Program-made: the position numbers and the translations under genes
Notes under the pieces: model-generated
The model's input: only the letters and a program-made list of their open reading frames with translations
What the model was told of the DNA's origin: nothing
Databases searched by the model: none
In this document: one piece after another, positions 53,130-58,441 of the stretch
Position numbering within the stretch: the first letter of the stretch is position 1
How the letters are laid out: each line of letters starts with the position of its first letter
Assembly: GCF_019212185.1 (NCBI RefSeq)
Contig: NZ_CP078138.1
Location: 2,524,501-2,588,500 of the forward strand
Source: Pseudomonas fluorescens
GTDB taxonomy: Bacteria; Pseudomonadota; Gammaproteobacteria; Pseudomonadales; Pseudomonadaceae
Direction: 5' to 3'
DNA: 64,000 nt

Positions 53130-54483
53130 CTGTAGGAGCGAGCCTGCTCGCGAAAAACCTGAGGTCGCCGCGTGCATTCTGGATGCACGCGTTATCGTTA
53201 ACGATCTTCGCGAGCAGGCTCGCTCCTACAATTTCCGTGGCCGATCGCAAAATCTGCATGCACCGCAGATCCACTGTAGGAGCGAGCCGGCTCCGGGCGG
53301 CGTTCCGACGAAAAACCTGAGACCGCTGCGTGCATTCTGAATGCACGCGTTGTCGTTGACGTCCATCGCGAGCAGGCTCGGTCCTACAATGTTCGTGGTC
53401 GATCGCAAAATCTGCGTGCACCGCAGATCCACTGTAGGAGCGAGCCTGCTCGCGAAGAACCTGAGACCGCTGCGTGCATTCTGAATGCACGCGTTGTCGT
53501 TGACGTCCATCGCGAGCAGGCTCGCTCCCACAATTTCCGTGGCCGATCGCAAAATCTGCATGCACCGCAGATCCACTGTAGGAGCGAGCCTGCTCGCGAA
53601 AAACCTGAGACCGCTGCGTGCATTCTGAATGCACGCGTTGTCGTTGACGTCCATCGCGAGCAGGCTCGGTCCTACAATGTTCGTGGTCGATCGCAAAATC
53701 TGCGTGCACCGCAGATCCACTGTAGGAGCGAGCCTGCTCGCGAAGAACCTGAGACCGCTGCGTGCATTCTGAATGCACGCGTTGTCGTTGACGTCCATCG
53801 CGAGCAGGCTCGCTCCCACAATTTCCGTGGCCGATCGCAAAATCTGCATGCACCGCAGATCCACTGTAGGAGCGAGCCGGCTCCGGGCGGCGTTCCGACG
53901 AAAAACCTGAGACCGCTGCGTGCATTCTGAATGCACGCGTTGTCGTTGACGTCCATCGCGAGCAGGCTCGCTCCTACAATGTTCGTGGCCGATCGCAAAA
54001 TCTGCATGCACCGCAGATCCACTGTAGGAGCGAGCCTGCTCGCGAAAAACCTGAGGTCGCCGCGTGCATTCTGGATGCACGCGTTGTCGTTGACGATCTT
54101 CGCGAGCAGGCTCGCTCCTACAATTTCCGTGGCCGATCGCAAAATCTGCATGCACCGCAGATCCACTGTAGGAGCGAGCCGGCTCCGGGCGGCGTTCCGA
54201 CGAAAAACCTGAGACCGCTGTGTGCATTCTGAATGCACGCGTTGTCGTTGACGTCCATCGCGAGCAGGCTCGCTCCTACAATGTTCGTGGTCGATCGCAA
54301 AATCTGCGTGCACCGCAGATCCACTGTGGGAGCGAGCCGGCTCCGGGCGGCGTTCCGACGAAAAGCCAGAGGCCACCTCGTACATTCAGGACAGCTGCGT
54401 CATCGTTGACGACCATCGCCAGCAGGCTGGCTCCCACAATGTCCTGGTCGTTCGAAAGATTTTCATCCACCGCATAGATCCTC
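53130..54483. repeat. tandem REPIN array, nine units of 144 or 158 bp
   Basis: Units begin (CTGTAGGAGCGAGCC or close) at 53130, 53274, 53432, 53576, 53720, 53864, 54022, 54166 and 54324; the last is degenerate. Each has a REP, a palindromic middle (GCGTGCATTC and GAATGCACGC around one base), an opposite REP and a 42-bp spacer ending GCAGATCCA. The 158-bp kind has 14 bp more after GAGCC (GGCTCCGGGCGGCG). Units 3 and 5 look the same, so the array grew by block duplication. Long reading frames here exist because 144 is divisible by three; they are not genes. Confidence 0.9.
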
Positions 54484-54486
54484 AGT

Positions 54487-54806
54487 CAGGCCGGCCGGTA
54501 GGCCGCCTCGGCTGCTTTTGATTTTGATCCACCGGCCCCGTTACAGAAGGCTGAGTGGAGGCATTCATCCGAGGGGAGCGCGTAGCGCGCTACGGCGCAG
54601 CCGCAGTCATCGAGAGGAGGTGCAGCGAAGCCAACCGGAGGCGATGACCCGCGGATGGATGCCGGAGCGAAGGTACCCCGAGCCTAGGCGAGGGGGCCGG
54701 ATGTTGGGGCAAAGCCTTTTGCTTACTTTTCGGCGTTTGGAAAAGTGAGTCGCTGTAAGAGCGAAACCATAAGCGGCCGTTACCGCAGGAATGGATATGT
54801 ACACCG
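54487..54806 (+). repeat. 320-bp dispersed repeat, copy C
   Basis: Same family as copy A, with a few differences (for example CTGCTTTTGATTTTGATCC). It lies in the first unit of the tandem duplication. Confidence 0.85.
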
Positions 54807-55012: not shown

Positions 55013-55332
55013 CAGGCCGGCCGGTAGGCCGCCTCGGCTGCTTTTGATTTTGATCCACCGGCCCCGTTACAGAAGGCTGAGTGGAGGCATTCATCCGAGG
55101 GGAGCGCGTAGCGCGCTACGGCGCAGCCGCAGTCATCGAGAGGAGGTGCAGCGAAGCCAACCGGAGGCGATGACCCGCGGATGGATGCCGGAGCGAAGGT
55201 ACCCCGAGCCTAGGCGAGGGGGCCGGATGTTGGGGCAAAGCCTTTTGCTTACTTTTCGGCGTTTGGAAAAGTGAGTCGCTGTAAGAGCGAAACCATAAGC
55301 GGCCGTTACCGCAGGAATGGATATGTACACCG
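55013..55332 (+). repeat. 320-bp dispersed repeat, copy D
   Basis: Appears identical to copy C, offset by 526 bp, in the second unit of the tandem duplication. Confidence 0.85.
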
Positions 55333-55430: not shown

Positions 55431-55444
55431 TTGACATCCATCAA
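55431..55444 (+). promoter_or_regulatory. FNR/Anr/Dnr box before nrdD
   Basis: TTGACATCCATCAA matches TTGAT-N4-ATCAA at 9 of 10 positions (TTGAC is an accepted half-site). It is 87 bp upstream of the nrdD ATG. Anaerobic induction of nrdDG is expected. Confidence 0.75.
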
Positions 55445-55530: not shown

Positions 55531-57546
55531 ATGCACAGTACGTTGATCTCAACCGGATGCAACCGTTTGCACAAGCGCAATGGCGACGTGGTTGCCTTTG
55601 ATGCCGACAAGATCCGCCAGGCGTTGATCGCTGCCGGCAAGGCCACCGGCGACTACACCGAGCTGGAAGTCGAGGGCTTGTTGCCGGCGGTGCTGGCGCG
55701 CTTGGAGGGTATGAGCCGGCTGCATGTCGAGCAGGTCCAGGACCGGGTCGAGCGAGTGTTGATGGACGCCGGTTACTTCAACGCGCTGCGCGCCTACATC
55801 GTCTACCGCGAACAGCACGGACGCATGCGCCGCGACCGGCGGACCATGGTCGAGGTCGCGACGTCGATGAACGAGTACCTCAATCGCGAAGACTGGCGCG
55901 TCCAGGCCAACGCCAACCAGGGCTATTCCCTCGGCGGCCTGGTGCTCAACGTCTCGGGCAAGGTCACTGCCAACTACTGGCTCGACGAGGTCTACAGCGA
56001 AGCCATCGGCCAGGCCCATCGCGAGGCGGATCTGCATGTGCATGACCTTGACATGCTCGCCGGCTACTGCGCCGGCTGGTCGCTGCGCACCCTGTTGCAC
56101 GAGGGCCTCAACGGCGTGCCGGGACGGGTCGAAGCCGGGCCGCCGAAGCACCTGAGCAGCGCCCTGGGGCAGATGGTCAACTTCCTCGGCACCCTGCAGA
56201 ACGAATGGGCCGGCGCCCAGGCCTTCAGTTCATTCGACACCTACCTGGCGCCCTACGTGCGCAAGGATCAGTTGCCCTATGACGAAGTGCGCCAGGCCAT
56301 CCAGGAGTTCATCTACAACCTCAACGTGCCCTCGCGCTGGGGCACCCAGACACCTTTTACCAACCTGACTTTCGACTGGGTCTGCCCGGAGGATTTGCGC
56401 GAACAGATCCCGGTAATCGGCGGTGAGGAAATGCCCTTTGCCTATGGCGAACTGCAAGTCGAAATGGACCTGCTCAATCGCGCCTACATCGAAGTGATGC
56501 AGGCCGGCGACGCCAAGGGCCGGGTGTTCACTTTTCCGATCCCGACCTACAACATCACCCACGACTTCCCCTGGGATAGCGAAAACGCCGACCGCCTGTT
56601 CGAAATGACCGCGCGCTACGGCCTGCCGTACTTCCAGAACTTCCTTAACTCGGACATGCAGCCCAACCAGGTGCGCTCGATGTGCTGCCGCCTGCAGCTG
56701 GACGTGCGCGAGTTGCTCAAGCGCGGAGGCGGGTTGTTCGGCTCGGCGGAACAGACCGGTTCGCTGGGGGTGGTGACGATCAACTGCGCGCGCCTGGGTT
56801 ATCTATTCAAGGGCGACAGCAGCGGTTTGCTGCAGCGCGTGGATGAGCTGATGGAGCTGGCGATGGAGAGCCTGGAGGTCAAGCGCAAGGTGATCCAGCA
56901 CCACATGGACGCCGGCCTGTACCCCTACACCAAGCGCTACCTGGGCACCTTGCGCAATCACTTCTCGACCATCGGCCTCAACGGCCTGCATGAAATGCTG
57001 CGCAATTTCAGCGGCGACGAGGAGGGCATGCACACCGAACAGGGCCGGCACTTCGCCGTGCAGTTGCTGGACCATGTGCGCGCGACCCTCGTGCGTTTCC
57101 AGGAAGAAACCGGCCACCTCTACAACCTCGAAGCCACCCCGGCGGAAGGCACCACCTACCGTTTCGCCAGGGAAGATTTGAAGCGCTACCCGGAGATTCT
57201 CCAGGCCGGCTGCCGCGAGGCGCCGTACTACACCAACTCTTCGCAGTTGCCGGTGGGCTACACCCAGGACCCGTTCGAGGCCCTGGAACTGCAGGACGAA
57301 CTGCAGTGCAAATACACCGGCGGCACCGTGCTGCACCTGTACATGGCCGAGCGGATTTCCTCGACCCAGGCCTGCAAGCAACTGGTGCGCAAGGCCCTCG
57401 GGCGCTTCCGTCTGCCGTACCTGACCGTGACCCCGACCTTCTCGATCTGCCCGGTCCACGGCTACCTCGCCGGCGAGCACGAGTTCTGCCCGAAATGCGA
57501 CGAAGCCCTGCTGTTGCAGGCGCAGAAAACCGCCAGCGTCCACTGA
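55531..57546 (+). CDS. nrdD: anaerobic ribonucleoside-triphosphate reductase, catalytic part
   Basis: The 671-residue protein is class III NrdD: an N-terminal ATP-cone (about 10-100), active-site cysteines C180 (LAGYCAGWS) and C385/386 (RSMCCRLQ), and a C-terminal metal site CPVHGYLAGEHEFCPKC. It stops straight after this site, so the glycyl-radical loop normally at the end (RVCGYLG in E. coli) is missing. That loop is encoded by the next small gene. ATG 55531 follows GGGGGC and homology starts near it. It makes dNTPs without oxygen. Confidence 0.94.
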   Translation: MHSTLISTGCNRLHKRNGDVVAFDADKIRQALIAAGKATGDYTELEVEGLLPAVLARLEGMSRLHVEQVQDRVERVLMDAGYFNALRAYIVYREQHGRMRRDRRTMVEVATSMNEYLNREDWRVQANANQGYSLGGLVLNVSGKVTANYWLDEVYSEAIGQAHREADLHVHDLDMLAGYCAGWSLRTLLHEGLNGVPGRVEAGPPKHLSSALGQMVNFLGTLQNEWAGAQAFSSFDTYLAPYVRKDQLPYDEVRQAIQEFIYNLNVPSRWGTQTPFTNLTFDWVCPEDLREQIPVIGGEEMPFAYGELQVEMDLLNRAYIEVMQAGDAKGRVFTFPIPTYNITHDFPWDSENADRLFEMTARYGLPYFQNFLNSDMQPNQVRSMCCRLQLDVRELLKRGGGLFGSAEQTGSLGVVTINCARLGYLFKGDSSGLLQRVDELMELAMESLEVKRKVIQHHMDAGLYPYTKRYLGTLRNHFSTIGLNGLHEMLRNFSGDEEGMHTEQGRHFAVQLLDHVRATLVRFQEETGHLYNLEATPAEGTTYRFAREDLKRYPEILQAGCREAPYYTNSSQLPVGYTQDPFEALELQDELQCKYTGGTVLHLYMAERISSTQACKQLVRKALGRFRLPYLTVTPTFSICPVHGYLAGEHEFCPKCDEALLLQAQKTASVH

Positions 57547-57578
57547 TTTCGATCCACCCAACCGCAAGGAGCTACACC

Positions 57579-57746
57579 ATGACTGCATCGACAACACTGC
57601 CCCAGGCGCAACGTCAACGCTGTGAAGTCTGGACCCGGGTGATGGGCTATCACCGCCCGGTCTCGGCCTTCAACCCGGGCAAACAATCGGAGCACCGCGA
57701 GCGCGTACATTTCACTGAAAGCGCGGCGCTGGCCGGGCGCCAATGA
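57579..57746 (+). CDS. free-standing glycyl-radical peptide of NrdD
   Basis: The 55-residue peptide has CEVWTRVMGYHRPVSAFNPGK (here the loop WTRVMGYHRP then FNPGKQSEHRER), which lines up with the RRVCGYLG...PFNAGKQEEVKRRV end of E. coli NrdD; the Gly of VMGYH is the likely radical residue. CAAGGAG precedes ATG 57579, 32 bp after nrdD, and its stop overlaps the nrdG ATG (ATGA). It seems to complement NrdD in trans. It is too short for many gene finders. Confidence 0.85.
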   Translation: MTASTTLPQAQRQRCEVWTRVMGYHRPVSAFNPGKQSEHRERVHFTESAALAGRQ

Positions 57747-58441
57747 GCCGAATGCTCAGGGTCGGGGGCCTGTTGCCCCTGACCACCATCGACTATCCGG
57801 GGCTACTCGCCTGTGTGCTGTTTTGCCAGGGGTGCGCCTGGCGTTGTCGTTACTGCCATAACCCGCAACTGATCCCGCCTCGGGGTACCGAGGAAATGGA
57901 CTGGCTGCGGGTTCTGGCGTTTCTGCAGCGCCGTCAGGATTTGCTCGATGCAGTGGTGTTCAGTGGTGGCGAGCCGACCTTGCAGCACGGCCTGCGGGGT
58001 GCCATGGATGAAGTGCGCGAGATGGGTTTTCGCATCGGTTTGCACAGCGCCGGGATCAAGCCGCAGGCGTTCGCCAAGGCGGTGGATGGGGCGGATTGGG
58101 TGGGCTTCGACGTCAAGGCGTTGCCTGAAGATACCCAGCTGATTACCCGGGTCGGCGGCAGCGGCGCGGCCAATTGGTGCAGCCTCGATTATCTGCTGGC
58201 CAGCGGGGTCGACTATGAATGTCGCACCACGGTGCACTGGCACCTGATCGATCCGACGCGGCTGCTGACCCTGGCCCGGCGTTTAAGCGAGCGCGGGGTC
58301 AAGCGCTACGCGGTGCAACTGGTGCGCACCGAGCAGATGTTCGATCCCTTGCTGCCAAGCCTTTCGGTCCATGGGGCAGCGCTACCGGAGTTGTGGCAGG
58401 CACTGCGTGAGTTGTTCCCGGTGTTTGTCTTGCGCGGATGA
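57743..58441 (+). CDS. nrdG: anaerobic ribonucleotide reductase activase NrdG
   Basis: The 232-residue protein is a radical SAM activase: the TTIDYPGLLACVLFCQGC start and the cluster motif CAWRCRYCHNP are typical. It generates the glycyl radical on the reductase using SAM and a [4Fe-4S] cluster. The start overlaps the stop of the glycyl-radical peptide gene, so both are made together. Confidence 0.95.
   Translation: MSRMLRVGGLLPLTTIDYPGLLACVLFCQGCAWRCRYCHNPQLIPPRGTEEMDWLRVLAFLQRRQDLLDAVVFSGGEPTLQHGLRGAMDEVREMGFRIGLHSAGIKPQAFAKAVDGADWVGFDVKALPEDTQLITRVGGSGAANWCSLDYLLASGVDYECRTTVHWHLIDPTRLLTLARRLSERGVKRYAVQLVRTEQMFDPLLPSLSVHGAALPELWQALRELFPVFVLRG

What the first reader, a model, noticed from the sequence alone, without database searches (positions are those of the whole stretch)
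55531..57746. Class III ribonucleotide reductase split into a catalytic protein and a 55-residue glycyl-radical peptide
nrdD ends directly after its C-terminal metal site, and the loop that normally carries the radical glycine (VMGYH followed by FNPGK) is a separate gene with its own ribosome site and a stop overlapping nrdG. This resembles the spare radical peptide GrcA of pyruvate formate-lyase, but here no full-length copy exists in the window. The peptide may work in trans and be exchangeable after oxygen damage. Other pseudomonads may share this; I could not check.
Basis: partly seen in the sequence, partly recalled or inferred. Interest (0 to 1): 0.72.

Follow-up and report, generated by a model that had tools for sequence, protein, structure and literature searches.

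The report
Radical enzyme in two separate pieces
In this Pseudomonas and many relatives, the enzyme that makes DNA building blocks without oxygen is encoded as a large body plus a separate tiny protein carrying its essential glycine radical site, and many phage contigs carry only the tiny piece, which makes the idea of a swappable radical part for this enzyme testable.

Summary
Confirmed and extended. nrdD (55531-57546, 671 aa) stops 15 residues after its C-terminal metal site. The missing glycyl-radical loop is a separate 55-aa gene (57579-57746, radical Gly23) with its own ribosome site, overlapping nrdG by 4 nt. The complete genome has no other NrdD or glycyl-radical domain match. It is not a sequencing error: hand counts over three genome searches give 114 split genomes, each with the peptide region, and 50 fused genomes, none with a stand-alone peptide match. 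The peptide lies in all three frames relative to nrdD; in one genome it sits about 9 kb away with nrdG. It is under strong purifying selection. A second split occurs in a distant NrdD branch. Terminase or tail genes flank several. Best reading: an obligate two-chain class III ribonucleotide reductase whose radical sits on a trans-acting, mobile peptide, which phages probably supply to the host enzyme. Trans activity, exchange after oxygen damage and the phage role are inferred, not shown.

The parts
55431..55444 (+). FNR/Anr/Dnr-type box TTGACATCCATCAA, 86 nt upstream of the nrdD start; fits anaerobic control
   Evidence: pattern match, (9 such matches in the window against 0.15 expected); the consensus is recalled; Dnr control of the P. 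aeruginosa nrdDG promoter from passages of PMC5645315, though PMC4860495 failed to find Anr/Dnr/NarL control of nrdD (passage)
55531..57546 (+). nrdD: catalytic chain of class III ribonucleotide reductase without the glycyl-radical loop (671 aa)
   Evidence: NF006126 and TIGR02487 matches stop before the glycyl loop; predicted fold matches solved NrdD structures
55573..55821 (+). ATP-cone of NrdD (residues 15-97)
   Evidence: PF03477 E 5e-17
56680..56691 (+). finger-loop motif MCCR (residues 384-387), which holds the cysteine that should receive the radical
   Evidence: invariant in the 36-row alignment; role inferred from the family, passages of PMC9669993
57448..57498 (+). C-terminal metal site C-x2-H ... 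C-x2-C of NrdD (C640, H643, C653, C656)
   Evidence: sequence; invariant; metal binding inferred from the family
57566..57571 (+). ribosome-binding site AAGGAG of the peptide gene
   Evidence: sequence; SD-like motif of 4 or more bases in 145 of 149 relatives, (start chosen to favour ATG and SD)
57579..57746 (+). glycyl-radical peptide gene (55 aa): Cys15, radical Gly23, FNPGK anchor; trans-acting part of the reductase
57645..57647 (+). codon of the radical glycine (Gly23 of the peptide, RVM-G-YHRP)
   Evidence: match to NrdD C-termini; that it bears the radical is inferred by homology
57743..58441 (+). nrdG (NrdG2 type): radical SAM activase, start overlaps the peptide stop by 4 nt
   Evidence: TIGR02495 E 6e-62

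Best explanation
nrdD, the 55-aa peptide and nrdG form one operon for a class III ribonucleotide reductase made of two chains. NrdD folds into the usual barrel with ATP-cone, finger-loop cysteines and metal site, but has no radical glycine. The peptide is translated from its own start, docks by its FNxGK...E...R segment where the C-terminal tail of a normal NrdD lies, and puts its RVMGYHRP loop into the barrel next to the finger-loop cysteine. NrdG, whose gene overlaps that of the peptide, makes the glycyl radical on the peptide (free or docked), which then passes to the NrdD cysteine to start nucleotide reduction. Because the radical site is on a cheap separate chain, oxygen cleavage at the glycine should cost a 6-kDa peptide rather than a 75-kDa enzyme, and any source of the peptide could serve the same NrdD. 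Phage contigs and a plasmid carry the peptide gene alone, and phages probably use it to keep the host enzyme supplied. Shown: the split, its conservation, its independence of frame and place, and the phage-borne genes. Inferred: docking, radical on Gly23, trans activity, exchange, and the phage benefit.
For: Pfam coverage splits between the two ORFs. No other NrdD or glycyl domain match in the genome. Co-occurrence, counted by hand from the tables: 114 of 114 genomes with a split-type NrdD also have the peptide region (G453 with an internal stop), 0 of 50 with a fused NrdD have a stand-alone match at E<=1e-3, and no listed genome has the peptide without NrdD. In 149 loci: Cys(-8), Glu(-7), Arg(-3), Met(-1), Arg-Pro(+3,+4), Asn9, Gly11, Lys12, Glu15 and Arg19 invariant; frame relative to nrdD 0/1/2 = 31/54/64. 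Median dN/dS 0.06 over 1591 pairs of 72 loci. Peptide and nrdG lie about 9 kb from nrdD in G792. Natural fused relatives carry the same loop at the NrdD end (L182, L196), which shows where the peptide belongs. Viral: in 80 of 80 kept loci the peptide is not in an NrdD frame and no NrdD or NrdG is in the locus; 48 of 49 contigs searched whole match only in the peptide; phage genes adjoin it in several. P. aeruginosa has a peptide record, and its nrdD mutant grows poorly without oxygen (passages of PMC4860495).
Against: No experiment shows the peptide, its radical or trans activity. In P. aeruginosa only the protein record was seen, not its gene position, and that record has Gln at the Lys12 place. 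The 149 cores were located by a pattern that itself demands the Gly, so Gly invariance there is by construction (L133 lacked it and was dropped). Fused enzymes exist inside or near the clade (L196, L182), so the split is not required for function. In G453 the peptide frame has an internal TAG. The model of fused L182 had low confidence at the glycyl loop and no two-chain model was possible. Viral loci were found with patterns that include the radical motif, so its constancy among them is partly selected; viral records may be fragments. Among 50,697 phage records only ANMV-1 and MT835493 matched.
Confidence: 0.88

Rival explanations
1. The two chains form a stable, permanently assembled enzyme; the split is a neutral accident fixed early in the lineage and the peptide is never exchanged. 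Phage copies are passengers.
For: Gene order nrdD-peptide-nrdG is kept in most split loci and the peptide overlaps or adjoins nrdG, as expected for subunits made together. No exchange was measured.
Against: Peptide genes on viral contigs without an nrdD match, a second copy about 620 nt from a RecT gene in G237, an orphan on an Allochromatium vinosum plasmid and placement apart from nrdD in G792 fit a freely supplied part better.
Confidence: 0.35
2. A programmed frameshift, readthrough or sequencing error joins the two frames into a normal full-length NrdD.
For: The genes are 32 nt apart here, and in 7 family genomes the peptide is in frame with nrdD behind one or more stops. In the separate L172/L189 branch it is also in frame behind one TAG.
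Against: Frames 0, 1 and 2 all occur (31/54/64), the stop-to-start gap runs from overlap to 483 nt with a ribosome site in 145 of 149, and in G792 long ORFs on the other strand lie between. The split is seen in 114 genomes.
Confidence: 0.02
3. The phage peptides are not helpers but decoys: they take the radical from NrdG or block host NrdD, limiting host DNA synthesis.
For: They are encoded without NrdD and NrdG; 4 of 61 distinct cores lack Cys(-8) and nine loci carry an extra cysteine-rich N-terminus.
Against: They keep the radical Gly and Asn9, Lys12, Glu15 and Arg19 in 61 of 61 distinct full cores, though a locus needed to match only one of six seed patterns; this is what a working part should keep, and phages need dNTPs.
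Confidence: 0.12
4. The peptide is a spare like GrcA, and NrdD has a radical site of its own somewhere else.
For: It is a small stand-alone glycyl-radical protein, like YfiD/GrcA (passages of PMC8683613).
Against: NrdD ends shortly after the metal site in the split rows of the alignment and there is no other glycyl domain match in the genome.
Confidence: 0.02

Closest known systems
Class III (anaerobic) ribonucleotide reductase NrdD/NrdG, e.g. E. coli, phage T4, Thermotoga maritima, Prevotella copri
   Same: Barrel, ATP-cone, finger-loop cysteines, C-terminal metal site, glycyl loop sequence and radical SAM activase in the operon
   Different: The described members and the E. coli-type genomes seen here carry the radical glycine on the NrdD chain; here it is on a separate peptide
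GrcA/YfiD and phage T4 Y06I, spare parts of pyruvate formate-lyase
   Same: Small stand-alone glycyl-radical protein acting on a large enzyme, also phage-encoded (passages of PMC8683613)
   Different: A different family (this peptide matches only PF13597 above cut-off; no PF01228 in the genome); there the enzyme has its own glycine and the spare repairs it, here the peptide is the only radical site. PMC8683613 says that only YfiD and Y06I were validated and speculates about spares for other enzymes
Split class II reductase NrdJa/NrdJb of P. aeruginosa
   Same: A reductase divided over two polypeptides in a pseudomonad (passage of PMC4860495)
   Different: Other enzyme class, no glycyl radical; [quoted passage not shown]
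PHROG phrog_4132 (unknown function)
   Same: The window peptide and all five phage peptides tested match its columns 108-166
   Different: The family has no function assigned; this work suggests one (glycyl-radical peptide of class III reductase). The ANMV-1 protein matches phrog_487 (NrdD-like) instead

Membership tests
Class III ribonucleotide reductase (NrdD) | NRDD family sequence and barrel fold | tested here: met
Class III ribonucleotide reductase (NrdD) | Finger-loop cysteine and C-terminal metal site | tested here: met
   MCCR and C-x2-H/C-x2-C invariant in 36 rows
Class III ribonucleotide reductase (NrdD) | Radical glycine on the same chain | tested here: not met
   NrdD stops at profile position 528 of 562; the loop is a separate ORF
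Class III ribonucleotide reductase (NrdD) | Partner radical SAM activase | tested here: met
   NrdG2, TIGR02495 E 6e-62, overlapping the peptide gene
Class III ribonucleotide reductase (NrdD) | Reduces ribonucleotides with a glycyl radical | not testable with these tools
   needs assay and EPR
GrcA/YfiD spare part | Small stand-alone glycyl-radical protein | tested here: met
   55 aa with the glycyl loop; the radical itself not testable
GrcA/YfiD spare part | Gly_radical family PF01228 | tested here: not met
   the peptide matches only PF13597 above cut-off; no PF01228 match in the genome
GrcA/YfiD spare part | Target enzyme has its own radical glycine which the spare replaces after oxygen cleavage | tested here: not met
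   No full-length NrdD in the genome
GrcA/YfiD spare part | Works in trans on the large enzyme | not testable with these tools
   inferred only

The most novel reading that the evidence does not exclude
The glycyl radical of class III ribonucleotide reductase is a replaceable, mobile cofactor protein in much of Pseudomonadota: cells swap the ~50-residue peptide after oxygen damage, and phages of anoxic habitats carry the peptide alone to keep or take over the host's anaerobic dNTP supply with a ~150-nt gene. Some phages add a metal-binding N-terminus of their own.
Probability: 0.5. Interest if true: 0.9.

Novelty: new variant of a known kind. Interest (0 to 1): 0.8.

Why it matters
In the papers seen, the class III ribonucleotide reductases described carry the radical on the catalytic chain. 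Here the chain that holds the radical is a separate, ~50-residue, readily made protein. That allows direct tests of what a glycyl loop needs in order to be activated and to dock, and of whether glycyl-radical enzymes other than pyruvate formate-lyase use separate radical parts, which the authors of PMC8683613 left as speculation (passages). It could help explain why class III activity was hard to measure in pseudomonads (recalled: Jordan 1999 did not detect it; paper not held), since a small peptide is easily lost. The phage-borne copies suggest a function for an unassigned phage family (phrog_4132) and a minimal way to support or control host dNTP supply without oxygen.

Tried and rejected
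Sequencing error, frameshift or readthrough: rejected by mixed frames, gaps and an unlinked case. Decayed gene: rejected by low dN/dS and invariant residues; G453 has an internal stop. A full-length copy elsewhere: no match. The two loci first scored as lacking a peptide among the 80 are L013, whose genome carries it on another contig, and L057, a MAG whose contig ends 74 nt after nrdD and whose genome showed none. The 128-against-3 viral pattern counts were not used as a ratio, because the NrdD patterns came from less conserved stretches; the whole-record search was used instead. The Elusimicrobia label of L085 was not taken as spread outside Pseudomonadota, because its NrdD nests among Pseudomonadota and it is a metagenome bin. 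Other phyla were not searched. Modelling of the fused L182 did not help: low confidence at the loop. In ten literature searches (lists capped in 65, 93 and 102) and passages of 12 papers I found no mention of a separate NrdD glycyl chain. Subscription papers are mostly not held: the 1999 Pseudomonas report was looked up in vain, the 1999 Alcaligenes eutrophus megaplasmid report (recalled) was not looked up by id, so prior notice there cannot be excluded.

Full report
OBSERVATION. The window holds nrdD at 55531-57546 (671 aa), a 55-aa ORF at 57579-57746 and nrdG at 57743-58441. NrdD matches PF13597 from position 2 to 528 of 562 (E 5e-173) with an ATP-cone in front; the peptide matches positions 531-562 (E 2.3e-9), so the family profile is covered almost exactly once by the two genes together. 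NrdG is of the NrdG2 type (TIGR02495, E 6e-62). NrdD ends 15 residues after its last metal-site cysteine. The peptide has an AAGGAG site 7 nt before its ATG and the RVMGYHRP motif with Gly23. Against PDB sequences the peptide alone gives only a non-significant hit (E 1.8), but at the C-terminal radical loop of Thermotoga maritima NrdD. The genome (one contig, 100% complete) has no second NrdD piece and no PF01228 glycyl-radical domain match. Its only match to PF02867, the class I/II reductase barrel, is a 969-aa frame; reading that as class I is mine, and then NrdD/NrdG would be its only oxygen-independent reductase.

CONSERVATION. Of the 80 named genome loci nearest to the window NrdD, 78 have the peptide as a separate ORF and none is fused; of the other two, one carries the peptide on another contig and one is at a contig end. 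They include Pseudomonas, Stutzerimonas, Halopseudomonas, Thioalkalivibrio, Sedimenticola and a Methylococcaceae MAG. Profile searches of 370 genomes of the class, 198 of the family and 397 of the phylum (overlapping samples) give, by hand count without double counting, 114 genomes with split NrdD and 50 with fused NrdD. The 114 all have the peptide region, none of the 50 has a stand-alone peptide match at E<=1e-3, and no listed genome has the peptide without NrdD; weaker matches would have been missed. Left out of the count: G445 and G203 (NrdD fragments), and G149 and G816 (weak matches that I do not take as NrdD). G453 is counted although its peptide frame has an internal TAG. Other named split cases are Cupriavidus necator H16 pHG1 (676, 66 and 239 aa for NrdD, peptide and NrdG), Bradyrhizobium diazoefficiens pNK6c and two Paracoccus plasmids. 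Pseudomonas aeruginosa has a 48-aa record (P0125), with Gln in place of the otherwise constant Lys12. Public records often name such proteins 'anaerobic ribonucleoside-triphosphate reductase', so they are annotated but, as far as I could search, not described.

NOT A FRAMESHIFT. In 149 split loci (152 without L192, a re-fetch, L194, whose NrdD is broken over frames, and L133, which has no intact loop; some species may be present twice through the two collections) the peptide lies in frame 0, 1 or 2 relative to nrdD 31, 54 and 64 times; apart from G792 the gap runs from overlap to 483 nt (median 32), with an SD-like motif of 4 or more bases in 145 and ATG in 148 (the script chose the start to favour ATG and SD, so these two figures are generous). 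In G792 the peptide and nrdG lie about 9 kb from nrdD with long ORFs on the other strand between. The 36-codon core shows median pairwise dN/dS 0.06 in 72 of the loci L007-L080. Cys-8, Glu-7, Arg-11, Arg-3, Met-1, Arg3, Pro4, Asn9, Gly11, Lys12, Glu15 and Arg19 are invariant in 149 of 149; the Gly is too, but the cores were located by a pattern that demands it.

EVOLUTION. A tree of 73 NrdD rows, built without the C-terminal columns (quick method, several long branches flagged), puts 57 split rows in one group (support 90) with the fused Acidiphilium L196 nested among them and the fused, long-branched L182 near its base; fused L087, L088, L089 and L112 lie outside. The split L172 and L189 (one genus) lie on the far side with the E. 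coli-type enzymes: there NrdD ends in TAG and a 60-aa ORF with RRITGYLVGT follows behind AAAGGG, in frame with nrdD, then an NrdG-like ORF; readthrough is not excluded for this pair. Starred branches force at least two changes of state. So a split probably arose twice and a secondary fusion is likely; the tree cannot by itself order gain and loss.

PHAGES. A search of IMG/VR viral contigs with the peptide found 128 encoding stretches, 80 kept. In 80 of 80 the peptide is not in an NrdD frame, and no NrdD or NrdG was found in the fetched locus, up to 4 kb a side; two (L222, L246) are cut by the contig end, 76 had a start codon in the range searched and 59 of these an SD-like motif of 4 or more bases. 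Fifty records were searched whole: 48 of those 80, chosen by hand mostly for length, L208 and the ANMV-1 virus. In 49 of 50 only the glycyl region matches (48 IMG/VR contigs of 6-108 kb plus ANMV-1); the other (G920 = L208, 203,584 bp) has NrdD ending after CPKC, NrdG and, after nrdG, a separate peptide. Such records may be fragments. Neighbours scanned in PHROGs include terminase (L235, L255), portal and head protease (L255), tape measure (L221), tail fibre (L211, L271) and integrase (L248); proteins tested from L249 and L283 gave no hit, and those of L287 matched mostly families of unknown function. The window peptide and the five phage peptides tested match phrog_4132, unknown function. The phage collection of 50,697 records has no match at E<=0.01 but ANMV-1 and MT835493, tested with five peptides. 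A second peptide in G237 sits about 620 nt from a RecT gene, and Allochromatium vinosum plasmid pALVIN01 has an orphan peptide. Viral cores reach a median 81% identity to the nearest host core, so they are not fresh copies; their median dN/dS is 0.26. Nine viral loci carry an N-terminal extension with four cysteines, perhaps a metal site of their own.

MECHANISM. Established for the family: NrdG makes a glycyl radical which is passed to a finger-loop cysteine (passages of PMC4493059 and PMC11226230). From the anatomy I infer that the peptide takes the place of the missing tail. Genetic support: in P. aeruginosa the nrdD mutant grows poorly without oxygen; the text says it was complemented with nrdD, the figure legend with nrdDG (passages of PMC4860495); the passages seen do not mention the peptide. 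Recalled, not read: the A. eutrophus H16 report gives NrdD as about 76 kDa, which fits the short chain.

NOVELTY AND LIMITS. Ten literature searches and passages of 12 papers did not mention a separate glycyl chain for NrdD; this is no proof of absence. PMC8683613 (passages) says only YfiD and T4 Y06I are validated and speculates on spares for other enzymes. I file it as a new variant of class III ribonucleotide reductase that works like, but is not a member of, the GrcA family.

Noticed in passing
L176:2134-4896, L177, L208:3914-6955: nrdD genes interrupted by intein-like inserts: with a LAGLIDADG domain at PF13597 position ~157 (L176; L177 has the same break), and in a viral contig, by sight, between the two finger-loop cysteines (SMC|...|CRL).
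   Followed up: partly
L172:3412-3594, L189: Second split in a distant NrdD branch: stop TAG, AAAGGG site, then a 60-aa ORF with RRITGYLVGT in frame with nrdD, then an NrdG-like ORF.
   Followed up: partly
L214, L215, L224, L237, L245, L255, L256, L260, L285: Viral peptides with an N-terminal extension of 34-50 aa holding four cysteines, in several PCxH...C...C-x2-C like; perhaps a metal site of their own.
   Followed up: no
L200:3186-3620 (ANMV-1 virus): Archaeal virus encodes a 144-aa stand-alone glycyl-radical domain with two CxxC pairs; no other NrdD match in the 38-kb record.
   Followed up: partly
L174:3303-7001 (G237:C3): Second peptide copy about 620 nt from a RecT gene; a further ORF there weakly resembles the end of the class I/II reductase barrel (E 0.009, under cut-off). 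Possibly a prophage.
   Followed up: partly
L195:3501-3710 (Allochromatium vinosum pALVIN01): Orphan peptide gene on a plasmid with no nrdD or nrdG beside it; the chromosome was not seen.
   Followed up: partly
peptide residue Cys15 (57621-57623): Cys eight residues before the radical Gly is invariant in 149 split peptides but absent in 3 of 6 fused relatives (L089, L112, L182); role unknown (tether or redox?).
   Followed up: no
window 53130-54474: Tandem array of ~144-nt units (also found as period 302), 84-93% matches, in the intergenic stretch before nrdD.
   Followed up: no
window 54518-54748 and 55044-55274: Identical 76-aa translations from two copies of a longer repeated stretch upstream of nrdD.
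   Followed up: no
window 4055, 23833, 37703, 41161, 55431, 62345: FNR/Anr/Dnr-type boxes: 9 matches on both strands (6 places) against 0.15 expected, so the window looks like an anaerobic gene region.
   Followed up: no
L013:7016-7564: Repeats directly after nrdD in a P. lini genome, where the contig ends; the peptide lies on another contig.
   Followed up: partly
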